A stretch of DNA of 43,829 nucleotides. Origin: Candidatus Zixiibacteriota bacterium (GTDB taxonomy: Bacteria; Zixibacteria; MSB-5A5; WJJR01). The position numbers were made by a program, and so were the translations under genes. The notes under the pieces were generated by a model that was given only the letters and a program-made list of their open reading frames with translations, was not told where the DNA came from and ran no database searches. The stretch spans positions 1 to 43,829 of the forward strand of contig JACRMA010000118.1 in the NCBI GenBank assembly GCA_016235085.1. Direction: 5' to 3'. Below, one piece after another: positions 20,593 to 33,937 of the stretch. Within the stretch, counting starts at the first letter, position 1; every line of letters begins with the position of its first letter.

Positions 20593-20683
20593 GGAGAGAT
20601 GTCCGAGTGGCTTAAGGAGCACGCCTGGAGAGCGTGTAGGCGCTAAAACCGCCTCCCGGGTTCAAATCCCGGTCTCTCCGCCA
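20593..20683 (+). tRNA. tRNA-Ser (anticodon GGA)
   Basis: The acceptor stem GGAGAGA (20593-20599) pairs with TCTCTCC (20673-20679); the discriminator is G and CCA is encoded (20681-20683). The anticodon stem CACGC/GCGTG encloses the loop CTGGAGA with anticodon GGA at 20627-20629, which reads UCC and UCU. A long variable arm between the anticodon and T stems and the GGTTCAAATCC T-arm fit a class II serine tRNA. The cloverleaf is complete. Confidence 0.97.
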
Positions 20684-21394: not shown

Positions 21395-23632
21395 ATGTCC
21401 GTCAGAGAACTAGCTCTGATTCGCATTTTGGGGCGGGCAGCAACAGTTCTGATCTTTACCATCATCACCAATGTCCTTCTCACGCAGCCGGTGACCGCCG
21501 CTTGGGTCGGCGTCGGTCCGCAAAACAAAGTCATTGAAGCCGTTGCCGTAGCACCCGACAACGCACTGGTGCGATTCGCCGGCGCATTCGGCTGGGGAAT
21601 CTTCAAGTCGACCAACGGCGGTGTTACCTGGTCGGCCATGCCCAACACGGGGATGACCAACGCTTACATTCGTGCAGTTCTGGCGCTCAGTTCAACAGAT
21701 GTATTCGTCGGCACCAACGATGGCGTCTATCACTCGGTTGATGGCGGGTCCTCCTGGACCTTTGTCCTGCCGACTCTCTTCTCCGTGCGCTCCCTGGCGT
21801 ATGACCCGCTGTCTGTGAGACTGTACGCCGGCACTTATGGCGATGATCTGTATTACTCCACCACCGGTGGGGGAGTCGGCACCTGGACAAAGTCAATTGT
21901 CCTCGACGATACCTCGGCGGTCGTGATGCATCACATTCGCAGTGTCGCGGTCTATGGCCGTGATTCTGTCTATGTCGGCGGATCGATTGCCGATGTGGCC
22001 AGCGGCGGTGCCCTCTTCGTCAGCCGCAATGGCGGTGTCGGGTGGTCGCAGGTGCAGCGCGGCAAGGGCATTCGCGGCTCAGTTGTCGGCATCGCGATCA
22101 GCCCCAACAATCCCGACTCAAGTTTGATTATAGGCATCGTCAAACTCGGCGTGTACAAGAGCACAGACGGCGGCATCTCCTGGCTCGGCATCGATGGCCC
22201 GTCCACCGTGCATCCCATCGGAGATACCAATATCAGTTGTGTCGCATTCACGCCCGCGTACCGCATGGCGGCTGGTGATTCGACCGGCGGCTTCTATCGC
22301 CGGGCATTGGGTGATACAACCCTGGGCTGGTGGCCGGCGACGGGAGTTCCGCTCATGCCCGCTTTTCCCACCAGTGCCTGGTCCAATGCCGCGGGGATGG
22401 AATTGATGCTCGGGACCGATGGCAAAGGAGTGTACCGTTCCACCGACAGCGGCGCTACGTTCGCCGTCAGCAACTCCGGAATGATGGGCACGGCCGTGCG
22501 GCAGATTCTCATCGCCAGTGCCGGCCGCATCGTTGTCGCGACCGGGTTCGGCGATAAAATCTGGTACACCGACAATGGCGGCACGACCTGGGCTCAGGCA
22601 GCCGTGCCAACCAGCAACTCGATCGACGACCTGGCCGCCACATCTGTACCCGGCACTCTGTACGCCGGTTCGTATGCCGCGGGTGTCCTCAAATCGACCG
22701 ACAACGGCCAGACTTGGGTGAACACGGACACAACCGTGATCAATAGATTTGTTCGCGCTGTCGCGGTTGCCCCGGGTTCGGCCACGGTGGCCTACGCCGG
22801 AACCGCCAATGGCGTCTTCAAGACAATCAACGGCGGAGCGAGTTGGGTGAGCACGAATGGTGTCTACATTCCCCCCTCAACGGCAGTTCACTCGCTCGCC
22901 GTGTCCCCATTTGCCTCCAACACGGTACTGGCCGGTACCGACTCATCGTATTTGTACCGTACCATCGATGGCGGCGCCACATGGAGCCATGTGGCGACCG
23001 CCGCCGGATTTCATGCGAACGACATATTCATTCGCACGGTGGATTTCGATCCCGCTACCTCCGGACGCGTCTACGCCGGCTGCGACAGTGGCCACGTCTA
23101 CATTTCCAGCGACAACGGCGCCACGTGGACGTACCTTGCCACACTTGCCACTGTCAATTCGGTTCGTCAGATCAGAATCGATCCTGCCCATCCAAGCCAT
23201 TTGTTCGCCGCCACATTCGGCGGCGGCGTCTTCGCCTCGCAAGACGGTGGCGCCACGTGGGCGAATATCTCCGGAGCGCTTCCCGATTCGCAGTTGTATA
23301 CGCTCACCCTTGACCCCGCCGGACCGTCAACCAATGTTTACTTGGGAACACGAGGACACGGGCTCTACAAAGGACCATACACCTTTCCGATTGCGGGTTG
23401 TAGCTGTCCCTCTCAGGGCGACCTCAACGGCGACACTTCAATCGACGTGTTTGACGTCATCGCTGTCATCGGAGTTGCGTTCAGCGGTAATCCCGATATT
23501 CAGGATCCGCAGTGCCCGATATCGCGCGGCGACGTCAATAACGACGTGAGCACGGACGTCTTCGACGTGATCTACCTGATCGCGACTGCTTTTAGCGGCG
23601 GCGCGTCACCCATCAATCCCTGCGGTCCATAG
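21395..23632 (+). CDS. Secreted Asp-box (BNR/sortilin-like) repeat protein with dockerin-like C-terminus
   Basis: 745 residues; the ATG follows GGGAGGAG at 21382-21389. A signal sequence (about 12-35) leads to a beta-propeller-like body with about eleven Asp-box motifs of the type STDGGATW (for example FKSTNGGVTW, YKSTDGGISW, FASQDGGATW), as in sialidases, sortilin-like and HCF136/YCF48 proteins. No sialidase catalytic arginine set was recognised, so it is probably a binding or structural protein. The last 70 residues carry two calcium-loop repeats, GDLNGDTSIDVFDVIAVIG and GDVNNDVSTDVFDVIYLIA, like a type I dockerin. No cohesin gene is nearby. The module more likely serves anchoring or sorting. 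Confidence 0.85.
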   Translation: MSVRELALIRILGRAATVLIFTIITNVLLTQPVTAAWVGVGPQNKVIEAVAVAPDNALVRFAGAFGWGIFKSTNGGVTWSAMPNTGMTNAYIRAVLALSSTDVFVGTNDGVYHSVDGGSSWTFVLPTLFSVRSLAYDPLSVRLYAGTYGDDLYYSTTGGGVGTWTKSIVLDDTSAVVMHHIRSVAVYGRDSVYVGGSIADVASGGALFVSRNGGVGWSQVQRGKGIRGSVVGIAISPNNPDSSLIIGIVKLGVYKSTDGGISWLGIDGPSTVHPIGDTNISCVAFTPAYRMAAGDSTGGFYRRALGDTTLGWWPATGVPLMPAFPTSAWSNAAGMELMLGTDGKGVYRSTDSGATFAVSNSGMMGTAVRQILIASAGRIVVATGFGDKIWYTDNGGTTWAQAAVPTSNSIDDLAATSVPGTLYAGSYAAGVLKSTDNGQTWVNTDTTVINRFVRAVAVAPGSATVAYAGTANGVFKTINGGASWVSTNGVYIPPSTAVHSLAVSPFASNTVLAGTDSSYLYRTIDGGATWSHVATAAGFHANDIFIRTVDFDPATSGRVYAGCDSGHVYISSDNGATWTYLATLATVNSVRQIRIDPAHPSHLFAATFGGGVFASQDGGATWANISGALPDSQLYTLTLDPAGPSTNVYLGTRGHGLYKGPYTFPIAGCSCPSQGDLNGDTSIDVFDVIAVIGVAFSGNPDIQDPQCPISRGDVNNDVSTDVFDVIYLIATAFSGGASPINPCGP

Positions 23633-23688: not shown

Positions 23689-24879
23689 ATGTGGATAATC
23701 GGCGGAGAAATTCTCGGACTGGCCGCGCTTCTGGCACTTGAAGCCCGGCGCCACCGGCATAACCTGTCCGCGATTCCCATCCGGGTGCACGTCAATGGGA
23801 CCCGCGGCAAATCATCGGTTACACGGCTGATCGCCGCGGGATTGCGCGCCGGCGGCCTGCGCACGATCGCCAAGACCACCGGCACCAAGCCCCGCTACAT
23901 CATGGCGGATGGAACCGAGCAGGAGATCATCCGCGCCGGCAAACCGGGCGTCATCGAGCAGGTTCGTATCATCCGCCGCGCCCGCGATCAAAATGCCAGC
24001 GCCCTCGTCATCGAGTGCATGGCCGTCAAACCGGATTCGCAGAAGATCGCCGAGGAAAAACTCGTACGCTCCACCGTGGGTGTCATCACCAACGTGCGCG
24101 CGGATCATCTCGACGAAATGGGCCCCACCGTCGGCCACGTCGCCGAAGCGCTCGCCAACACGGTGCCGTTTGGCGGAGTGCTGTTCACCGCCGAACGCGA
24201 AAACCTCGAACCCCTCTGCCGCCGCGCACAGAAACGCAGCACCGCCGTCGTCGTCTCCCGGCACGAGGCGATCACCGACGCCATGATGACCGACTTCACC
24301 TACTTCGAGCATCGGGAAAATGTCGCATTGGCGCTCTCCGTGACCTCCTGGTTTGGTATTGATCCGCTCGTGGCCCTGAAAGGCATGCACAGCGCCACAC
24401 CCGATCCCGGCGCTCTGCGCGTGCATCACCTCACGGCATTCGGCACGCCCATCACCTTTGTGAATGCCTTCGCCGCCAATGATCCGGATAGCTACAAGAT
24501 CATCTGGGACCGCCTCGAACCGTGGCGCCATGATGGCGCCAAGATGGTCGCGCTGATTACCTGCCGCAAAGATCGCATCTCCCGGGCCGAACAACTGGCC
24601 CACTTGATCGTCAACGGGGTCGAGGCGGACCAGTACTTCATCTGCGGCCAGTCGACCCATACGGTGTACCAGGCCGCCATCGGGATGGGAATGGACCGGA
24701 CGCGGGTGCACGATTACGGCGGACAAGATGCCGCCGCGATTTTTGAATCGGTTTTGGAAGTGGCAAACAAACACCCGGTCACGGTTGTCGGTCTCGGCAA
24801 CATCGTGGGCCTGGGCGAACAACTGGCCAACTACTTTCAGCACAGAGGAGAGGAAGTTGTATACCGAGGCGTTGCGTGA
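23689..24879 (+). CDS. pgsB: Poly-gamma-glutamate synthase subunit PgsB (CapB)
   Basis: 396 residues. An N-terminal membrane helix (WIIGGEILGLAALLAL) is followed by the Mur-ligase-like ATP site NGTRGKSS at 36-43, an exact PgsB/CapB signature. KTTGTKPRYI and TNVRADHLDEMGPT also match the family. PgsB is the ATP-dependent amide ligase that polymerises glutamate through gamma-carboxyl links, working with PgsC. It is the first gene of a six-gene run in which most genes overlap or nearly touch. The start has GGAG about 12 bases upstream, a rather distant site. The family call is strong; that the product is poly-gamma-glutamate is by analogy. Confidence 0.93.
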   Translation: MWIIGGEILGLAALLALEARRHRHNLSAIPIRVHVNGTRGKSSVTRLIAAGLRAGGLRTIAKTTGTKPRYIMADGTEQEIIRAGKPGVIEQVRIIRRARDQNASALVIECMAVKPDSQKIAEEKLVRSTVGVITNVRADHLDEMGPTVGHVAEALANTVPFGGVLFTAERENLEPLCRRAQKRSTAVVVSRHEAITDAMMTDFTYFEHRENVALALSVTSWFGIDPLVALKGMHSATPDPGALRVHHLTAFGTPITFVNAFAANDPDSYKIIWDRLEPWRHDGAKMVALITCRKDRISRAEQLAHLIVNGVEADQYFICGQSTHTVYQAAIGMGMDRTRVHDYGGQDAAAIFESVLEVANKHPVTVVGLGNIVGLGEQLANYFQHRGEEVVYRGVA

Positions 24880-25351
24880 TCTGATCATCCACTCGGTGGG
24901 GCTGGGGCTGATTATCAGTCTCGGATTCTCCGAGACACTCGGACTGGCGGCGGGCGGAATGGTGGTGCCCGGATATGTGGCGCTGGCGATTCACGAGCCG
25001 GCCCGCGTCTTCGGCACCGTTCTGGTGGCCCTCGCTACATTTGGGATCATCAAATTGCTGTCGACTTACATGTTCATCTTTGGCCGCCGCCGGGTCGTGC
25101 TCACCATTCTGGTGGGATTCCTGCTGGGCTGGCTCTCCCGCGATTGGATGGTCTTCCACCTCAACAACAATCAACCGCTCGAATTCCAGACCATCGGTTT
25201 GATCATCCCCGGTCTCATCGCCAATTGGATGGAGCGTCAGGGTGTCGTCTCCACCATCTCGATGATGGTGATCGGGGCGATTCTGATCCGGCTCCTGCTG
25301 ATGATTCTCACCGGTGGTGACATTGCCCTCGGACAGGATGTGCTGATATGA
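24857..25351 (+). CDS. pgsC: Poly-gamma-glutamate synthase subunit PgsC (CapC)
   Basis: 164 residues with about five membrane helices. The opening YTEALRDLIIHSVGLGLIISLGF and the motif GMVVPGYVAL are typical of PgsC/CapC, the membrane partner of PgsB. The frame is open from 24728, but the real start is probably TTG 24857: GAGGAGAGG precedes it directly and the protein then has the family's usual N-terminus. That start lies 23 bases inside pgsB, so translation is coupled. The TGA overlaps the next ATG. The TTG start could hold PgsC below PgsB level. Confidence 0.9.
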   Translation: MYTEALRDLIIHSVGLGLIISLGFSETLGLAAGGMVVPGYVALAIHEPARVFGTVLVALATFGIIKLLSTYMFIFGRRRVVLTILVGFLLGWLSRDWMVFHLNNNQPLEFQTIGLIIPGLIANWMERQGVVSTISMMVIGAILIRLLLMILTGGDIALGQDVLI

Positions 25352-26481
25352 AATGGCGTCAGGAACCACTCGGAAAAGGGGCGCTGGTCGGCCTGGCGAT
25401 CTTCGCCATCCTGATCTTCTATGCCGCGGAACACACCGCGCGGCCGCTTCAGCAGCCGCGCTACAAGACCAAGCTTCGCGCCGCCGAACTTGATCAGCAG
25501 GCCCAGCGCGCGATCGCCAGCTATCTGCACGAGAAGGGCATCAAGATCGATCCGCGCAACGATCCCTGGGGTACAGGCCTGATCGGCGAGGAACGCACTC
25601 CGATCACGTCGGACCGTGGCGTGGCCACCGCCAAGACGCTCGCCACCAACCCCAACTTCGCTGCGGCGTTTGTCGAATTGCTCAACCGCGCCGGGGTCAG
25701 GAAAGGCGACGTCGTTGCCGCCGGAATGACCGGCTCGCTCCCCGGATGGGATGTGGCCTTCTTCGCCGCCTGTCAGGCCATGGAACTCAGGCCGATATCC
25801 ATCGTCTCCGTCGGCGCATCCGACTGGGGCGCGACCCGTCCCGAACTCACCTGGCTGGACATGGAAAGCATCATCACCAGGGCCAACATCTGGGACGATC
25901 GCTCGTTTGCAGCCTCCCTCGGCGGCGGCGGTGACAACGGCCGAGGCATCTCACCCGCCGGCCGCGACATGATCAAACAGGCGATTGCCCGTAACGACGT
26001 GATGCTCATCGAGGACAAGTCGCTCGAAGGCATCATCGAGCGCCGAATGGTGCTGTACGACTCGCTCGCTGCCGGCATGGGCCCGATTGCCTGTTACGTG
26101 AACATCGGCGGCGGACTCGCCAACATGGGCGGCTCACTCAATGCCAAGCTCATTTCTCCGGGAGTATCGCGACACTTGGCAAAGCGCAATTACCCGGTCC
26201 GTGCGGTCATCAATCGCATGGCCGAACGCGGGATCCCCGTCATCAACTTGTCCAACGTCGTCCACATCGCCGATATGTACAACCTCCCCGCCGTCGTCGC
26301 ACCCGAAGCGCCGGCCATCGGCGAAGGCTCACTTTACTTTCGCGAGCAATTCAACATTTCCACCACCATCATCCTGACGGCTGTGCTGATGATTGTCGTG
26401 TTTGCCGTCATCCGAATTGACCTGCGGCATCTGTTCTTCCGCCGCCGGTCCTCACTCGCGACGGTGCAGGAGCTGCCATGA
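25348..26481 (+). CDS. pgsW: Poly-gamma-glutamate system protein (PgsW-like)
   Basis: 377 residues anchored by one helix at each end (about 11-27 and 338-356), with a large domain between that faces outside. Recognisable parts include the GVRKGDVVAAGMTGSLPGW segment, YVNIGGGLANMGG and HIADMYNLPAVVAPEAPAIGEG. These match the family called poly-gamma-glutamate system protein, which accompanies pgsB and pgsC in many non-Firmicutes genomes. Its biochemical role is not established; assembly or export is the usual guess. It overlaps pgsC by ATGA and the next gene by ATGA. No PgsA or PgsE is present, so this gene may take the place of PgsA. Confidence 0.85.
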   Translation: MKWRQEPLGKGALVGLAIFAILIFYAAEHTARPLQQPRYKTKLRAAELDQQAQRAIASYLHEKGIKIDPRNDPWGTGLIGEERTPITSDRGVATAKTLATNPNFAAAFVELLNRAGVRKGDVVAAGMTGSLPGWDVAFFAACQAMELRPISIVSVGASDWGATRPELTWLDMESIITRANIWDDRSFAASLGGGGDNGRGISPAGRDMIKQAIARNDVMLIEDKSLEGIIERRMVLYDSLAAGMGPIACYVNIGGGLANMGGSLNAKLISPGVSRHLAKRNYPVRAVINRMAERGIPVINLSNVVHIADMYNLPAVVAPEAPAIGEGSLYFREQFNISTTIILTAVLMIVVFAVIRIDLRHLFFRRRSSLATVQELP

Positions 26482-27377
26482 AACGGCTGGTTGGGTCAGC
26501 AATTCTTTCAATGGTTGTGCTCATGGGAGCCGGCCACTCCTGGGGAGACGAACTGCTCGCGCCAATCCGCGGGAGCATCGTCAACCTGTCGATCAACGAG
26601 AAGCAGAGCACGTATTACAGGCTCCACACTGATTCTACACTCGAAGTGACCGCCACCGGCCCCGGCTGGCTCAGCGCCATCGTCCGGCTGATCCTGCCAC
26701 CCGGCGCCACCGACAGCGCGTCCTACCGCGTCATCGTGACCGCCGGCGCCGATACGATGAAGCAGTTCAGTGATACAGTCGGTACGGCTGATGCGGAATT
26801 GGTCGGTTCCAAGGAGCAGCCAACCACCTCCAGAAAGTTCTCCTTCCCGATTTCTGAGAAACAGCGAACCTACACCTTTCGCCTGCTAGACAACGGCGGC
26901 CGTGACGCTGCCGTGCGATTCCTTGTGCGGCGCCCGTCGGCGCATGCCAAGGAGCAGCCGCTATTCCCGATCGCGATGGATCGCTCGCTCACACTGCTCT
27001 ATCACGAGCGCAGACTCGAGTTCCATCTGGCCACCGCGCAAAATCCGGTGAAAGTCCGCGTGATCGGACCAACCAAATTGCGAATCGTCACGCGCCTGGT
27101 CTTCGGGCCGACGATGAAGGGCCTGCAGCCCTATGCGTTGGATCTGACACTCGACAAGGAGACACTCAAAGTGGAAGAACTGTCTTCCACCAAGGCGGTC
27201 TCGAGCGAGTTCGAAGACGAGAAAGAGTGGCTTCCGGGCAAAAGCCGAACCGTCTATGTCGCCATCCCCTCGGGCGAACATGATCTGACGATCACACCAA
27301 AGGCAACCACCGCCCCCGGCGTGGCCGTGCGATTCACCCTGCCGTCCGAAACCGGAACTTCAGACGAAAGCAATTGA
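26478..27377 (+). CDS. Unknown secreted protein of the pgs operon
   Basis: 299 residues with a signal peptide (about 1-23, ending SWG). I do not recognise the family. The mature part looks rich in beta strands and has two similar halves: each contains an alternating hydrophobic stretch with a STYYRL/QRTYTFRL element (NEKQSTYYRLHTD near 38 and SEKQRTYTFRLLD near 132), suggesting a duplicated beta-sandwich. The ATG overlaps the stop of the PgsW-like gene as ATGA and the next start follows four bases after its own stop. Its position suggests a periplasmic part of polymer export between the inner-membrane enzymes and the barrel encoded next. That role is inference. Confidence 0.8.
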   Translation: MKRLVGSAILSMVVLMGAGHSWGDELLAPIRGSIVNLSINEKQSTYYRLHTDSTLEVTATGPGWLSAIVRLILPPGATDSASYRVIVTAGADTMKQFSDTVGTADAELVGSKEQPTTSRKFSFPISEKQRTYTFRLLDNGGRDAAVRFLVRRPSAHAKEQPLFPIAMDRSLTLLYHERRLEFHLATAQNPVKVRVIGPTKLRIVTRLVFGPTMKGLQPYALDLTLDKETLKVEELSSTKAVSSEFEDEKEWLPGKSRTVYVAIPSGEHDLTITPKATTAPGVAVRFTLPSETGTSDESN

Positions 27378-27381
27378 CGCC

Positions 27382-28590
27382 GTGCACTCCGGACGACTCA
27401 TCATCGGTGCCGCCGCGGCCGCGTTCCTTTGTTCGATTGCGTCCGGTCATGCCGCCGGCATGAAACTTGGAGCACGCTCTCAGGACGTTCGTGTCCAGAG
27501 GGCCGCCGATTCGGCGTTCAGCCAGCGGCAACTCGATGACCCGAAGGCGCAAACTCCTGAAGTTCAGCCCCGCATACCGAATCCGCCACCCGCGCCCGCG
27601 AAGAAGAAAACCCGCTCCAGCGCCTCGCTCCGTGGGCGGTGGGAATCCGGCCTCTCTGTGCGGGGGTATTACGACGGCAATATCCTCGATTATTCGCAGC
27701 GAGACCTGGATCACTTCAAATCACGGACGCATCTCAACAAGTTCGCACTGGAAACGACCGACGACTGGGTGAGCGATCTCGGCGGTGACGTCGGCCGCCG
27801 CTGGGGCTCCAGATCGCGCAATGAGTACCGCGTTCGACTTTCCGCTGACGTACACTGGTATGCTCGCAACCAAATCAAAAATTGGGTCGACTATGCCGCG
27901 GAGGGCCGCTGGGCACGCCGCAAGACGACGCTCATCGCCCATCTGGGCTGGACCCCGCATTTCTACGTCCGCGAACTTCAGGCACGGAATATTCCTCGTC
28001 AATACCCCGCGTCACCGCCCTACAGGGCCGCCGAATACCACGCCTGGTCGGCAAATCTGGAGTATCGATTTCAATCCGCCCTCCCCTTGGAACACCGCCT
28101 TTCTGCGGGTTGGAAGCGGACCGACTACAGCCACGTTTTCGACGAACGCGACAACTCAACGTACTGGGCAGAGTATGGATGGCAGGTTCCCCTGACGGCG
28201 GCTTCGAGCGCTTCCTGGAGTTACCGCTATGCCTCGGTTCTTACGGCCGGAAGGAATCTCCCCGCCAATTTCGTGGACATCAGCCGCAGCGAACATACGC
28301 TGCAAGCCGGGCTCGAGTACGACAGCCCCCATTCACCGCTCGGGGCCGCACTGGCCGTCGCCTATGAGCGCCAGAATTTCACTTCGGGCAAGTCCACTGA
28401 TTTCGATCACTACGGCCGGCACGATGACGAGGTGCGCATCGTCCCGGAAATTCGGTTGACCCTATCCGGCGGGTGGCGATACAAACTGTTCTATCAGTGG
28501 ACTCACGATACGTCGAATTCGAAACAGACAGCCGACTTCGGCGCCTTCAGTGACAATCAACTCGGACTGCGAGTGACTCACACATTCTAG
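27382..28590 (+). CDS. Predicted outer-membrane beta-barrel protein of the pgs operon
   Basis: 402 residues with a GTG start four bases after the previous stop and a signal peptide ending near GHAAG. After a proline-rich linker (RIPNPPPAPAKKK) the protein is full of alternating aromatic strands such as WESGLSVRGYYDGNI, YRVRLSADVHWYARN and WRYKLFYQWTHD, and it ends in phenylalanine (VTHTF). Both are standard signs of an outer-membrane barrel. No named family is recognised. As the only barrel in the operon it is the natural candidate for a polymer exit channel or surface anchor. Confidence 0.8.
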   Translation: MHSGRLIIGAAAAAFLCSIASGHAAGMKLGARSQDVRVQRAADSAFSQRQLDDPKAQTPEVQPRIPNPPPAPAKKKTRSSASLRGRWESGLSVRGYYDGNILDYSQRDLDHFKSRTHLNKFALETTDDWVSDLGGDVGRRWGSRSRNEYRVRLSADVHWYARNQIKNWVDYAAEGRWARRKTTLIAHLGWTPHFYVRELQARNIPRQYPASPPYRAAEYHAWSANLEYRFQSALPLEHRLSAGWKRTDYSHVFDERDNSTYWAEYGWQVPLTAASSASWSYRYASVLTAGRNLPANFVDISRSEHTLQAGLEYDSPHSPLGAALAVAYERQNFTSGKSTDFDHYGRHDDEVRIVPEIRLTLSGGWRYKLFYQWTHDTSNSKQTADFGAFSDNQLGLRVTHTF

Positions 28591-28595
28591 CCATC

Positions 28596-29885
28596 ATGAA
28601 ACGATCACGCACGATTTGGGCACTTCTGGCGATGCTGTTGTTGGCAGGGTGTGCCAGCCCCATCAAATCTCCGCCGTCGTCCCACTTTCCCGCGATGGCG
28701 CCCGATGGCTCGCGTGTGATTATCGGGTTTACCGATGCATTGTCAGACAGATTCGGACGCGAGAATGTAGAAGTCACCGCTTCTGACGGAACCCGGCTGA
28801 TGATCGACTCAGTATCTCTCGATTCCGTATCGGGGACGATGCTGGAGATTGACGTTTCCCCGGCCTACGATCTGCGGACTCCGCTTCGTGTGAAGGTCTT
28901 CGGACTCTATTTTCTGCGCGGTCCCGCGGTCTCCGAACAGCCGCTCGAGTTGACGATCGCTCCCGGCGTACTCTACAACCGCGATATCGCCCCCTTTCTT
29001 GCCGCCCGGTGTTCCGCGTGTCATGGCGCATCGAATCCCGGTGGGGGATACCGGACCGATTCGCGCGCGGCGCTTTATGCGTTCGGCAGCGACTCGGTCG
29101 ACTTGAACCGCTCGCCGGACCTGATTCCGGGGAATGACCGCTGCCAACTGGCGGTCAAGACGTCATTCACCGGCCGCGAATTCTACCGCGCGAATCTCGA
29201 GTTCTTCGAGGCGGAATTGATCCGGCAATGGATTCTCAACGGCGACGCGGCCGATGTCCGTCCGGCGGGACAGCCGGGCTCAATCACGGCGCTGGTCCGC
29301 AATTTCACTCTCGTCAATGTCGGATTCCCCGCACAGCCGGATCTGTCCCAAGCTCTCCAGCCGTCGAATTATCGCCTCGTCGATCTCGATGTCGCCGGTC
29401 CGCCCTTCACACCGGCCAGTGTCGAGGCCGAATCGCACGGTAGCACCATCGTTACGCTTCGTTTCCCGCAACAGAAGATGTATCACCACTACCAACTGAC
29501 AGTCGGCGCGATGCACGACCAATATGGATCGCTCATGTTCGACTCGGCCACGGCCGGGTACCGGGCTCTGTTATCGTACACGGTTGACATCGCTCCGCTA
29601 TTCGCCCGGACCTGCAATAACTGCCACGGGCCGTCGGCCTCCGATTCACTGTGCGGCTCCTACCGGACAGACTCATACGGTGCCCTCTTCGGCTACGGCT
29701 CCGATTCCACGCTCGACACGCGCAACCGCAATCTGGAACCCGCCGATTCGATTTGTGCGATCGTCACCAAGACCCGCCAGATTGACGGCAAGACCGGCAA
29801 GTGCGCCATGCGTGTCCCGCTTTCCCCCATGGAATCACACCTGATCACCGACTGGGTCATCAACTACTACGCCCGTGAGAATTAG
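28596..29885 (+). CDS. Lipoprotein with two planctomycete-type cytochrome c (CxxCH) domains
   Basis: 429 residues. The lipobox LLAGC (Cys19) marks a lipoprotein. Two CxxCH haem-attachment motifs occur: CSACH at 139-143 and CNNCH at 340-344. Each is followed by GxYRTDS(R/Y)(A/G)AL(Y/F)(A/G)(F/Y)GSDS and then a C-x2 to C-x4 segment, so the two domains are a duplication. This pattern resembles the PSCyt1 planctomycete-type cytochrome c domain. An Ig-like strand region (residues 40-120, repeated near 235-310) precedes each. Haem binding is predicted from the motif only. The gene follows the barrel gene by five bases, so it belongs to the pgs operon, where a redox protein is unexpected. Confidence 0.85.
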   Translation: MKRSRTIWALLAMLLLAGCASPIKSPPSSHFPAMAPDGSRVIIGFTDALSDRFGRENVEVTASDGTRLMIDSVSLDSVSGTMLEIDVSPAYDLRTPLRVKVFGLYFLRGPAVSEQPLELTIAPGVLYNRDIAPFLAARCSACHGASNPGGGYRTDSRAALYAFGSDSVDLNRSPDLIPGNDRCQLAVKTSFTGREFYRANLEFFEAELIRQWILNGDAADVRPAGQPGSITALVRNFTLVNVGFPAQPDLSQALQPSNYRLVDLDVAGPPFTPASVEAESHGSTIVTLRFPQQKMYHHYQLTVGAMHDQYGSLMFDSATAGYRALLSYTVDIAPLFARTCNNCHGPSASDSLCGSYRTDSYGALFGYGSDSTLDTRNRNLEPADSICAIVTKTRQIDGKTGKCAMRVPLSPMESHLITDWVINYYAREN

Positions 29886-30124: not shown

Positions 30125-31843
30125 TTACGGGCAGTTCCCTGGGTACGGATCGCACGCGCAGGGATTGCACGGCGGGTTCCCACCCTGGAAGGCGTAGTCA
30201 ATCATACGGACAACATCGAGGACGTCGTCGACCCCGTCACAATTGACGTCACCCCGGTCGACGTGGGGACAGCCGGCATCCTGGGCCGGCTGCGCGCCCC
30301 CGGAAAAGGCATGGTCGATCAGTGTGACAATGTCCAGAACATCGATCGCGTCATCGTTTCCCGTCACGTCACCATGGTGCACACACCCGATCTGATCCGG
30401 ATTGGGGTAGACTGGACAGTTGTCGCACGCGTCGCCGATTCCGTCGCCATCACCATCCACCTGACTCAGATTCGCCACCGTGGGACAGTTGTCACAGATA
30501 TCGCCGATCCCATCATGGTCTGTGTCTGTCTGATCGGGATTCGCGATCGACGGGCAGTTGTCCACCGGGCACGTGTTGGGAAACCCCGGATCACCGAATC
30601 CATCCCCGTCAGAGTCGGTGCAGGCATCGCACACATCACCACGGCCATCGTGATCGGCATCTTCCTGAAGCGGATTGGCGATGTCGGGGCAATTGTCGTC
30701 TAAGTCCGGAACCCCATCGCCATCGAGATCCAGAAGATCGCCGTCGGGTCCTCCGTAGGCTCCCATGTCGTTTCGGGTGGTCCCCATCGCAGGATACAGC
30801 GCCATCCCTGGGGCTCCCGGATCCTCGATGTCATTGAACGAGGGCGATGGATCGCCAGCATCGATCGCGGGTGAACCGGCGTTCAACTGAAAACTGCTGA
30901 GGTCGGCAAATGAAGGGAGCAGATTGATATTCCCGGTGCCGGCATACCCTCCGCTGACATCGGAGTACGTGACATTTGCCGTTCCTCCGAACATCAGCTT
31001 GATCTGGACCGATGTGTTACTCCAGAGAATACCGTTGGCGACAACCGCGGTCCCCGCAAACGACACGACGCCTCCACTTCCGGCGCCACCACTGACATTG
31101 GCATAGAGAACGTTGTTAAACTGTGTGGTCGCCGGTGTCGCGCCATTCAGCCAGACAGATCCGCCACCGTACGAACCCACCGCCCGATTGGCATTGAGAA
31201 TGTTATTTCTTACGGTGGCGCGCACCGGGAAGTTCAGCACGATTCCCGATCCATATGCCCCGACATTGTCAATGAATGTGTTGTACAAGATCCGGGGGCT
31301 GCCATCGCCGGCACGGATACCGCCGCCGCCATAACTCGTCACTCCGCCACCGGCGAGGTAATTGCTCTGAAACAGATTGTGCCGGATCGTCGGTGACGTG
31401 TAGGCGCAGAGAATACCCCCGCCTTCGCGAAAATACCCCGCCCCGTGCTCATCGTGCCAGACCGTCCCCAGGCCATTGGCCAGGGTGAATCCCTGAATGA
31501 CCGTCCGCGCGTCCTCGCCATCGATCACCACAATCACGCTCGCCGTGTCGGGCTTGACCGGTGCGCTGCCGTCGATGATTGTGCTGGCGATAAACGACGG
31601 ATCCTTGGCCAGCACATAATGACTGGTTAGCACGATCCTCTTGCCGAACATTCGCAAATTCTCAAAGTACATGCCGGGCGCAACCAGGACTGTGTCCCCG
31701 TTGGCAGCCGCATTGATACCGGCCTGTAGCGTCGGCTGATCCGCAGGGACATTGATTGTGGCGGCGCTCGATTCTGCTGCGATGCCAATGACAGCCAGCC
31801 CCAGCGAGGCCACCACGGCCAAACCAAATCCGTTTCTCTTCAT
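30125..31843 (-). CDS. Secreted beta-helix protein with thrombospondin-3-like repeats and dockerin-like tail
   Basis: 572 residues from ATG 31843, fixed by AAAGGAG seven bases upstream and a signal peptide ([20 protein letters not shown]). Residues 30-330 form a right-handed parallel beta-helix of the pectin-lyase fold, opening with [25 protein letters not shown]. Residues of about 345-480 hold four to five calcium-binding repeats (DxDxDGxxDxxDNCP), as in thrombospondin type 3. The tail has two dockerin-like loops, [19 protein letters not shown] and [18 protein letters not shown]. No pectinase catalytic residues are identifiable. It is likely a large secreted or surface protein of unknown ligand, sharing the tail type with the Asp-box protein. 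Confidence 0.88.
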
Positions 31844-32129
31844 GACAACTCCTTTGGACACAAGGGTCCCGATGTCAGCGCAGCAGCAGCCGCGCATCCG
31901 GCTTGTTGTCGCCGGGAGCAGGCGGGGCAATGCGCGCTCACCTGTTCATGCGGAAGACTTCAATGCTCCGATCGGCCGATCCGGGACAATCGGCGATCGC
32001 AGCCGGCCTTCCACCTGCCCGCAAGATATCGGGATGGTGCAACGGCGATATGAATCTGTGTTGAAGTGCAACTTGCGGGGGATAAGCGGCCGGTTTCGCG
32101 TGACGAGTGGCGCTCCGGCGAATGGCAAA

Positions 32130-32879
32130 CTATAATGCGCCATCCAGATTCTGACGGTATCGCCGGCTGACGGTCAGACGGGTTCCATCGCGAAGCTTAA
32201 GCACATACTCGCCCTTCCCCATCGCGTGCAGTTCTTTGATGCGGCTGATATTCACAATGATATTGCGGTGGACACGCCGGAAGGTCTTCTGATCCAGACG
32301 TTCCTCCATGCTCTTCATCGTCTGGCGATACAGGTGCTTCTGTCCGCCGGCATGGATCGTCACGTAGTTCCCCGCTGATTCGACCCAGTCGATTTCACTG
32401 ACGGCGACCAGAACCCCCCGCCCCACCGATTTGATCAGGATGCGTTCATCCTTCCGGTCAGCCGGCCGGAGATCAGCCAGCAGGGCCTGAATCTGGGCCT
32501 GGGTGATTGCCGCCTGTCCGTGAGCCATGTGCTCCCGTGCTCGTTGCACTGCCCGGTTGAAACGGTCCCGGTCGAACGGCTTCAGAATGTAATCGAGTGC
32601 ATGCACTTCGAAGGCGCGCACGGCAAACTGATCGTATGCCGTCACGAAGATGATCGCGGGAAGCGTGGCGTCACCCGCCTGCTGCAGCACACCGAAGCCA
32701 TCCAGTTCGGGCATCTGAATATCGAGGAACACCACATCCGGCGCCTGCATCCGAATCGCCTCGGCCGCCTCGCGGCCATTCGCGCATTCACCGACCACGG
32801 TCACATCGGGAATATCCGCCAACAGCGCCCTGATGCGCTTGCGCGCCAGCGGTTCATCATCGGCGATAAGAACGCGCAT
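32130..32879 (-). CDS. LytTR-family response regulator
   Basis: 249 residues from ATG 32879 (GGAAG just upstream; the open frame extends to 32984 over the kinase gene). The receiver domain shows IADDEP with Asp7-Asp8 and phospho-acceptor Asp53 in FLDIQMPELDG, then TAYDQFAVRAFEVHALDYILKPF. The C-terminal LytTR DNA-binding domain contains DWVESAGNYVTIHAG and FRRVHRNIIVNISRIKEL. It should bind DNA as a dimer when phosphorylated by the kinase encoded immediately upstream; the gap is only eight bases. Targets are unknown. Confidence 0.93.
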   Translation of the reverse strand: MRVLIADDEPLARKRIRALLADIPDVTVVGECANGREAAEAIRMQAPDVVFLDIQMPELDGFGVLQQAGDATLPAIIFVTAYDQFAVRAFEVHALDYILKPFDRDRFNRAVQRAREHMAHGQAAITQAQIQALLADLRPADRKDERILIKSVGRGVLVAVSEIDWVESAGNYVTIHAGGQKHLYRQTMKSMEERLDQKTFRRVHRNIIVNISRIKELHAMGKGEYVLKLRDGTRLTVSRRYRQNLDGAL

Positions 32880-32887
32880 TGCTTCCG

Positions 32888-33937
32888 CTATTCCTGCGCC
32901 GTCGAGGAGGTGAGGATCGGGGGCTGCAATGGCAGATGGATCGTGATTGTGAGCCCGTCGGAATCCACCATCGAAAACCGGCACCGGTCACCATAGAGCT
33001 GTTGCAGCCGTTCACGGACATTGGCCAGCCCCACCCCGTTGCCGTTGCTGCTCTGCGCTGTCCGGTCCAGACCGACCCCGTCGTCCGATACTTCGAGACG
33101 AAGCTTCTCCCCCTCGCACACAGCGCTCACCCGCACCGTTCCCCCCGCGGCCTTTGGGGTGATCCCGTGACGGATCGCGTTCTCCACCAGCGGTTGCAGG
33201 ATCAGATTGGGTACCTCCACATCGAGCGCCTGCGGTGACACGTGGATTTCGGTCCGCAACCGATCCGAAAACCGGATCCGCTCGACCTCGAGATACTTCT
33301 CCACGCGGTCGGCCGCCTCGACGTCTTCACGCATCAAAGCCGAGATCGTGTGCAGGGTATTGAACAGAAAGTGCGGCTGAAGCTGCGCCTTGAGCGCCTG
33401 CAATTGCGCCCCCGCCAGACGCGTGCGCAGCTCGGCCGCCAGCAACTCCTCCTGCCGGTGCCGCCGGGCGTAGGCGATGACATACGATGCCACGGCGATC
33501 AGCGCATACGTCAGCATGGTCGTGTGAAACCGGTTCCGCAGCATCAGCCAGAACGCATCCGAAACTGTCTCCAGTCCCGGCATGTGGACCCCATGCATGT
33601 AGTAGTAATCGATCGACCGATTGGCGCTGGCGTAGATGAACACATGGACAAGCGATATCAATGATCCGGCGACGAGATGAATCACCAGCGACATGCGCCA
33701 CTTCATGCGGTCGAATCGCAGCCGGGCACACAGCTTGAAGATGGCAACGCTGAAGATTCCCCAAAGGTACCACTCGACCAATCCCAGAAGCAGTGACTCC
33801 GACCACGTGATCGGATCCTTCGCATTCTTAAACAGGATGTACCAGCGTGTGGCCCAGAAAACGCCCAAGAGCGTCCAGCCCAACACGAAGAGCGCCCATC
33901 GCGGAAACTTACTTTCGATTGAACGACTCGGCGTCAT
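32888..33937 (-). CDS. LytS/YehU-type sensor histidine kinase
   Basis: 349 residues. Four membrane helices fill the first 155 residues, and there is no recognisable ligand domain. The His_kinase (LytS-type) domain has the phospho-acceptor in LQPHFLFNTLHTISAL (His189), the N-box LILQPLVENAIRHG and the ATP-binding GVGLANVRERL. It forms a two-component system with the LytTR regulator that follows. Similar pairs control cell-wall, surface polymer or nutrient responses, but the signal cannot be read here. Confidence 0.92.
   Translation of the reverse strand: MTPSRSIESKFPRWALFVLGWTLLGVFWATRWYILFKNAKDPITWSESLLLGLVEWYLWGIFSVAIFKLCARLRFDRMKWRMSLVIHLVAGSLISLVHVFIYASANRSIDYYYMHGVHMPGLETVSDAFWLMLRNRFHTTMLTYALIAVASYVIAYARRHRQEELLAAELRTRLAGAQLQALKAQLQPHFLFNTLHTISALMREDVEAADRVEKYLEVERIRFSDRLRTEIHVSPQALDVEVPNLILQPLVENAIRHGITPKAAGGTVRVSAVCEGEKLRLEVSDDGVGLDRTAQSSNGNGVGLANVRERLQQLYGDRCRFSMVDSDGLTITIHLPLQPPILTSSTAQE

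What the first reader, a model, noticed from the sequence alone, without database searches (positions are those of the whole stretch)
23689..29885. Six-gene pgs operon joining PgsB/PgsC/PgsW to a barrel, an unknown periplasmic protein and a two-haem lipoprotein
The genes overlap or lie within five bases of each other (ATGA at 25348 and 26478; gaps of four and five bases later; pgsC starts inside pgsB). Known family knowledge: PgsB and PgsC make the poly-gamma-glutamate chain, and model Gram-positive systems add PgsA and PgsE. Neither is here. Instead there is a secreted protein with two similar halves, a barrel ending in Phe and a CxxCH lipoprotein. Inference: this is a diderm polymer synthesis and export machine reaching from inner to outer membrane, possibly tied to a redox step. 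The operon as a whole is not one I know as described.
Basis: partly seen in the sequence, partly recalled or inferred. Interest (0 to 1): 0.78.

Follow-up and report, generated by a model that had tools for sequence, protein, structure and literature searches.

The report
Polyglutamate operon with outer-membrane barrel
A bacterium with two membranes carries, as one tight gene unit, a known enzyme set for making a glutamate polymer plus two previously undescribed partner proteins, one periplasmic and one outer-membrane barrel, that probably carry the polymer out of the cell; how this polymer leaves two-membrane cells is otherwise unexplained.

Summary
The operon is real. PgsB, PgsC and PgsW match NCBI's curated models; the next gene (X, 299 aa) and the barrel match nothing in Pfam, NCBIfam or PDB sequences.

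In all 133 genomes held of the phylum, PgsW occurs in 19. Sixteen of these form one class (six families) with the order pgsB-pgsC-pgsW-X-barrel (some cut by contig ends). X and barrel were not found without pgs genes, except one relic where a ~4.4 kb deletion joins the start of pgsB to the end of the barrel gene. The other three pgs genomes lack X and barrel and have gamma-glutamyltransferase beside pgsB, as in Cetobacterium.

The five-gene core is a conserved unit, but PgsB-PgsC-PgsW is a known triad, so lacking PgsA is not new. The two-haem lipoprotein occurs in only 3 of 16, so a general redox step is unsupported.

Best explanation: a gamma-polyglutamate synthase with its own envelope-crossing export path: X as periplasmic polymer-binding adaptor, the barrel as exit channel. 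Synthesis rests on homology; export is inferred. New variant of a known kind.

The parts
21395..23632 (+). secreted Asp-box/BNR beta-propeller protein (745 aa) with dockerin-like C-terminal repeats; conserved upstream neighbour, possible extra component
   Evidence: Pfam Sortilin-Vps10/BNR; full-length orthologue in only 5 of 119 genomes, all 51-89 bp upstream of pgsB
23689..24879 (+). pgsB, poly-gamma-glutamate synthase ATP-dependent ligase, N-terminal membrane anchor
   Evidence: TIGR04012 431 bits, cut-off 222.7; Mur_ligase_M
24857..25351 (+). pgsC, polytopic membrane subunit; TTG start inside pgsB, conserved as TTG or GTG in relatives
   Evidence: TIGR04011 127 bits, cut-off 96.5; PF14102; start codons
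25348..26481 (+). pgsW, 'poly-gamma-glutamate system protein': two terminal transmembrane segments around a domain predicted periplasmic
   Evidence: TIGR04332 306 bits, cut-off 100; hydropathy with positive flanks; no PDB relative
26478..27377 (+). X: secreted basic protein of two homologous beta-rich halves (residues about 26-155 and 158-292)
   Evidence: alignment of 13; hhalign of halves 99.5%; no Pfam/NCBIfam/PDB match; pI mostly 9-10
27382..28590 (+). outer-membrane beta-barrel protein (402 aa, about 12-14 strands predicted), Phe at C-terminus
   Evidence: alignment of 12 with conserved YDDNI/YSD, YYYRN, FDERD, DVS, GRxD motifs; amphipathic strand peaks; no family match
28596..29885 (+). 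two-haem c-type lipoprotein, present only in one family
   Evidence: lipobox and two CxxCH; weak PccH/PSCyt1 matches; full-length relatives in 3 of 119 genomes only
29010..29024 (+). first haem motif CSACH
   Evidence: sequence
29613..29627 (+). second haem motif CNNCH
   Evidence: sequence

Best explanation
This is a gamma-polyglutamate synthesis and export operon of a diderm bacterium. PgsB (ATP-dependent ligase) and PgsC (membrane subunit) make and thread the polymer through the inner membrane, with PgsW, anchored at both ends with its domain in the periplasm, standing where PgsA stands in Bacillus. X, a basic tandem beta-domain protein in the periplasm, binds the polyanion and passes it on. 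The barrel is the outer-membrane exit. The haem lipoprotein and the upstream propeller are lineage-specific additions that act on or hold the polymer. Shown: gene identities by curated models, tight order, co-inheritance of five genes, duplication and basic charge of X, barrel-like pattern. Inferred: polymer chemistry, topology, and the roles of X and the barrel.
For: PgsB/C/W exceed curated cut-offs. PgsB and PgsW over cut-off occur in the same 16 of 119 genomes. X and barrel were found only in genomes with PgsW: 16 of 19 against 0 of 114, apart from the relic (Fisher 5e-18, which ignores relatedness). Order and spacing are kept across six families. Relic deletion from pgsB to barrel in G036, with an intact operon in congener G120. 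Congruent divergence of X, barrel and PgsW (Mantel r 0.94-0.97). X is basic, pI 7.2-10.3. Barrel pattern and C-terminal Phe. No PgsA or gamma-glutamyltransferase in the genome.
Against: No polymer has been shown in this phylum. Fusobacterial-type pgsBCW loci and three divergent loci here lack X and barrel, so a barrel is not always needed, or is encoded elsewhere. AlphaFold models were unusable for the barrel (pLDDT 28) and poor for X (42), so neither pore size nor complex is tested. Strand prediction alone cannot tell a channel from an enzyme or anchor. The Mantel correlation would also follow from simple vertical inheritance.
Confidence: 0.55

Rival explanations
1. The barrel is not an exit pore but an outer-membrane enzyme or anchor: it fixes the polymer to the outer membrane, trims it or modifies it, and X presents the polymer to it. 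The polymer would stay cell-bound as a capsule or periplasmic layer.
For: The barrel has strikingly conserved polar residues (D98, N100, Y104, S105, D128, N163, R197, D299, R346, D348, N392), more than a plain pore needs. Twelve-stranded barrels include enzymes such as OmpLA and LpxR (own knowledge). The genome lacks gamma-glutamyltransferase, which in Bacillus anthracis (CapD) releases or anchors polymer (role from own knowledge).
Against: No known barrel-enzyme family matches. A separate exit route would then still be needed.
Confidence: 0.25
2. The operon makes a different gamma- or amide-linked anionic polymer or a short oligomer attached to another molecule, not free gamma-polyglutamate.
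For: PgsB belongs to the Mur-ligase/FolC superfamily, whose members join various amino acids. PgsW chemistry is unknown. In Francisella the homologous capBCA locus has not been shown to make capsule (PMC4688374).
Against: PgsB scores 431 bits against a 222.7-bit equivalog cut-off and PgsC is over its cut-off.
Confidence: 0.2
3. The haem lipoprotein is a core part and the machine couples polymer export to an electron-transfer step.
For: It lies 5 bp behind the barrel in the window and close behind it in all three genomes that have it, with both CxxCH motifs conserved.
Against: Found in 3 of 16 operons, all of one family. No conserved Met or second His stands in the first haem domain as axial ligand. 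Thirteen operons do without it.
Confidence: 0.07
4. Barrel and X import or scavenge a polymer and only share regulation with the pgs genes.
For: Barrels with periplasmic binding partners often import polymers (own knowledge).
Against: No transporter or hydrolase is in the operon. X and barrel were not found without the synthase genes.
Confidence: 0.07

Closest known systems
pgsB-pgsC-pgsW triad of Fusobacteriota (Cetobacterium somerae plasmid p1, NZ_CP143320.1)
   Same: Same three families in the same order with overlapping genes
   Different: Cetobacterium has gamma-glutamyltransferase and a succinylglutamate-desuccinylase-like gene upstream and no X or barrel next to it
Francisella capBCA locus
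   Same: Diderm CapB/CapC locus with a third membrane gene; FTT_0807 is called capA, 'hypothetical poly-gamma-glutamate system protein' (PMC5362203), the product name of the PgsW model
   Different: No barrel or X partner is described; its role in capsule is disputed (PMC4688374). The gene-name order differs between these two papers; the link to PgsW is by product name, not tested by sequence
Bacillus pgsBCAE / B. anthracis capBCADE
   Same: PgsB and PgsC families
   Different: PgsA and gamma-glutamyltransferase are absent from this genome; PgsW, X and barrel are not described parts of the Bacillus systems
Cyanobacterial pgsB/pgsC locus (Chroococcidiopsis plasmid pCHRO.01)
   Same: A diderm pgsB/pgsC pair with envelope genes beside it
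   Different: It carries an HlyD-type periplasmic adaptor and a serine hydrolase instead; no PgsW, X or barrel match in the stretch searched
Cloacimonadota PGA operon (Ca. Digestoria delfossei)
   Same: Predicted PGA operon in an uncultured bacterial phylum (PMC13082233)
   Different: Described there as CapB, CapC and CapA(PgsF) only, with the typical Gram-positive organisation

Membership tests
PgsB (TIGR04012 equivalog) | score above 222.7 bits | tested here: met
   431.3 bits
PgsC (TIGR04011 / PF14102) | score above 96.45 bits | tested here: met
   126.9 bits, PF14102 121.3 bits
PgsW (TIGR04332) | score above 100 bits | tested here: met
   305.6 bits
PGA capsule system as modelled by CapsuleFinder | CapB and CapC present (mandatory) | tested here: met
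   model in PMC5542703; genes
PGA capsule system as modelled by CapsuleFinder | PgsS depolymerase absent (forbidden part) | not tested
   no model of PgsS was run
Bacillus-type pgsBCAE operon | PgsA (PF09587) present | tested here: not met
   no match in the genome, and none over cut-off in 17 of the 19 PgsW genomes
Bacillus-type pgsBCAE operon | PgsE small peptide present | not tested
   about 50 residues; not searched
Gamma-polyglutamate producer | gamma-linked glutamate polymer made | not testable with these tools
   needs chemistry
Outer-membrane beta-barrel protein | signal peptide, amphipathic strands, C-terminal aromatic residue | tested here: met
   hydrophobic leader; 13 peaks against 4.8 +/- 1.8; Phe last in 9 and Trp in 1 of 12 members
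Outer-membrane beta-barrel protein | closed barrel fold | tested here: inconclusive
   AlphaFold pLDDT 28 with two sequences
c-type cytochrome lipoprotein | lipobox and CxxCH motifs | tested here: met
   LLLAGC, CSACH, CNNCH
c-type cytochrome lipoprotein | conserved distal axial ligand | tested here: inconclusive
   no conserved Met or second His in the first domain; H415 possible in the second (three sequences only)

The most novel reading that the evidence does not exclude
X and the barrel are the first dedicated periplasmic and outer-membrane parts of a gamma-polyglutamate (polyamide) exporter, so pgsB-C-W-X-barrel defines an envelope-spanning polyamide secretion system of diderm bacteria.
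Probability: 0.5. Interest if true: 0.75.

Novelty: new variant of a known kind. Interest (0 to 1): 0.57.

Why it matters
Genomic surveys place PGA capsule genes in many diderm phyla (Planctomycetes, Synergistetes, Fusobacteria; PMC5542703), yet the model used there has no outer-membrane part, and no outer-membrane exit for this polymer was found in the literature that could be searched. Two defined protein families, not found without the synthase genes in this phylum and lost together with them in one relic, give a concrete and testable candidate for that missing step, and mark a distinct class of PGA system with PgsW in place of PgsA.

Tried and rejected
Foldseek with the weak X model returned generic tandem jelly-roll proteins with TM-scores mostly 0.2-0.45: taken only as a hint of two beta-sandwich modules. 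Pfam, NCBIfam and PDB sequence searches with single proteins and alignments gave nothing for X or barrel and no PDB relative for PgsW. A viral-contig search for PgsW found no relative. Plasmid search for the barrel: no match. A Fusobacteriota-wide search was not possible. The flanking two-component system was examined as a linked regulator and not adopted: a relative of the kinase also sits in a genome without pgs genes. Literature on PgsW under that name: none; Zixibacteria with pgsB: none.

Full report
OBSERVATION. The six ORFs, overlaps and gaps described are all present. PgsB (23689-24879), PgsC (24857-25351, TTG start inside pgsB after a GGAGAGG site) and PgsW (25348-26481) score far above NCBI's curated cut-offs: 431 against 222.7, 127 against 96.5 and 306 against 100 bits. 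The next three genes match no curated family well. X and the barrel have no significant match in Pfam, NCBIfam or the PDB even when every member of an alignment is scanned or a profile is used. The lipoprotein has only weak cytochrome c matches (PccH, PSCyt1). Between the window and a congener (L002) all genes show purifying selection, dN/dS 0.04-0.18, so they are real genes. Promoter- and terminator-like sites inside the operon do not exceed chance, and none on the + strand separates the genes convincingly.

ANATOMY OF THE PARTS. PgsW has a transmembrane segment at each end with positive residues on the outer flanks, which by the positive-inside rule puts its 300-residue domain in the periplasm; this is inference. 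X has a signal peptide and two homologous halves of about 130 residues (hhalign probability 99.5%), each with a GP...R motif and a P-x-G-x-H-x-Y-like motif. It is basic in nearly all members (pI 7.2-10.3, most above 9), and 7 of 19 invariant or nearly invariant positions are Arg, Lys or His, as expected of something that binds a polyanion. The weak AlphaFold model shows beta strands throughout (pLDDT 42) and resembles generic tandem jelly-rolls, a hint only. The barrel has 13 amphipathic beta peaks in its last 322 residues against 4.8 +/- 1.8 in shuffles, while PgsW has 5 against 5.2. Its C-terminal residue is Phe in 9 and Trp in 1 of 12 members, and it carries invariant polar motifs (YDDNI..YSD, YYYRN, FDERD, DVS, GRxD). 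The AlphaFold model of the barrel was useless.

CO-INHERITANCE. In 119 genomes of the phylum PgsW and PgsB (over cut-off) occur in exactly the same 16. In all 133 genomes held, PgsW occurs in 19 and the barrel in 16 of those plus one relic; X occurs in the same 16 (X itself was searched in 119 genomes and in the added loci). No genome without pgs genes has X or an intact barrel. The order pgsB-pgsC-pgsW-X-barrel with overlaps or gaps of a few bases recurs across families f1, f6, f9, f10, f13 and f15; in G084 the barrel lies on another contig because the first contig ends, G132's contig ends inside the operon, and G120's barrel is cut by a contig end. Within family f1, three genomes have the unit and four lack all of it. 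The sixteen are not independent, so the Fisher value (5e-18) overstates the case; the spread over six families and the relic carry the argument.

A NATURAL DELETION. In G036 the first 72 or so codons of pgsB run directly, out of frame, into the last 50 or so codons of the barrel gene. The congener G120 has an intact operon, and its pgsB start aligns with the relic up to the break. About 4.4 kb, estimated from intact relatives, was lost, from inside pgsB to near the end of the barrel gene. The relic shows that its ancestor also had pgsB and barrel as the ends of one block.

TWO CLASSES OF PGSBCW IN ONE PHYLUM. Three genomes (G044, G090, G107) carry divergent PgsB, PgsC and PgsW (PgsB 248-262 bits) without X or barrel. 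Directly upstream of their pgsB is gamma-glutamyltransferase, as near pgsB on a Cetobacterium plasmid. The X-barrel class has no gamma-glutamyltransferase beside pgsB, and the window's genome has none at all and no PgsA. So PgsW systems seem to come either with gamma-glutamyltransferase or with X and barrel; this is a pattern in 19 genomes, not a law.

THE LINEAGE ADD-ONS. The two-haem lipoprotein is found full length only in three genomes of the window's family, always directly behind the barrel. Its first haem domain has no conserved Met or second His that could be a distal ligand, so ordinary electron transfer is not indicated. The upstream Asp-box propeller (21395-23632) is found full length in just five genomes (families f1 and f6), each time 51-89 bp before pgsB; it is as well linked as the lipoprotein and should count as a candidate component. 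In f10 and f15 a sigma-factor-like and an anti-sigma-like gene stand upstream in several loci instead (read by eye).

MECHANISM. Most likely PgsB-PgsC polymerise glutamate at the inner membrane and thread it out; PgsW takes the place of PgsA on the periplasmic side; X binds the chain and hands it to the barrel, which lets it out. Gene identities, order, co-inheritance, charge and barrel-like pattern are shown. Polymer identity, topology and roles are inferred. The main rival is that the barrel anchors or processes the polymer rather than being a pore.

COMPARISON WITH WHAT IS KNOWN. PgsB/PgsC systems in diderms are known from surveys; the CapsuleFinder PGA model requires only CapB and CapC and has no outer-membrane part (PMC5542703). 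Fusobacterium nucleatum is reported to make polyglutamate (Candela 2009, cited in PMC3815933). PgsW is a named NCBI family and the product name given to Francisella FTT_0807 (PMC5362203). The Cloacimonadota operon is described as CapB-CapC-CapA (PMC13082233). A cyanobacterial plasmid has an HlyD adaptor beside pgsBC. None of these has X or this barrel in what was found. Hence: new variant of a known kind, with two new families.

LIMITS. Only one phylum could be searched in depth, plus plasmids and viral contigs. The phylum itself was not identified by name here; the dockerin-like tails recall Zixibacteria (own knowledge, not tested).

Noticed in passing
21395-23632: Secreted Asp-box propeller with dockerin-like C-terminal repeats, a full-length orthologue only beside pgsB in families f1 and f6; the C-terminal repeat is shared with many other secreted proteins of the genome.
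   Followed up: partly
G036:C51 about 48870-49240 (in L063): Deletion scar joining the start of pgsB to the end of the barrel gene; the congener G120 keeps the operon.
   Followed up: yes
24857 and the same place in relatives: pgsC starts with TTG in 12 of 13 loci and GTG in one, overlapping the end of pgsB; a conserved weak start may set the PgsB:PgsC ratio.
   Followed up: partly
L060, L061, L062: Divergent PgsBCW class with gamma-glutamyltransferase upstream and very long (about 1050-1870 aa) acidic secreted proteins downstream.
   Followed up: partly
L049, L050, L052, L053: Upstream of pgsB stand genes that look like DNA polymerase III delta, sigma factor and anti-sigma factor; L049, L051, L052 and L053 have PspC-like genes downstream (read, not scanned).
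   Followed up: no
32130-33937: LytTR two-component pair on the opposite strand downstream; a related kinase (30% identity) lies downstream of the operon in L059 too, but one also sits in a genome without pgs genes.
   Followed up: partly
30125-31930: Secreted protein with thrombospondin type 3 repeats and the same dockerin-like tail.
   Followed up: no
20593-20683: tRNA-Ser (GGA) gene just upstream of the propeller-pgs block; whether it marks an insertion site was not tested.
   Followed up: no
L058 9283-10281: PgsW frame ends about 45 codons early compared with its congener L059, losing the C-terminal transmembrane segment: a frameshift, real or an assembly error.
   Followed up: no
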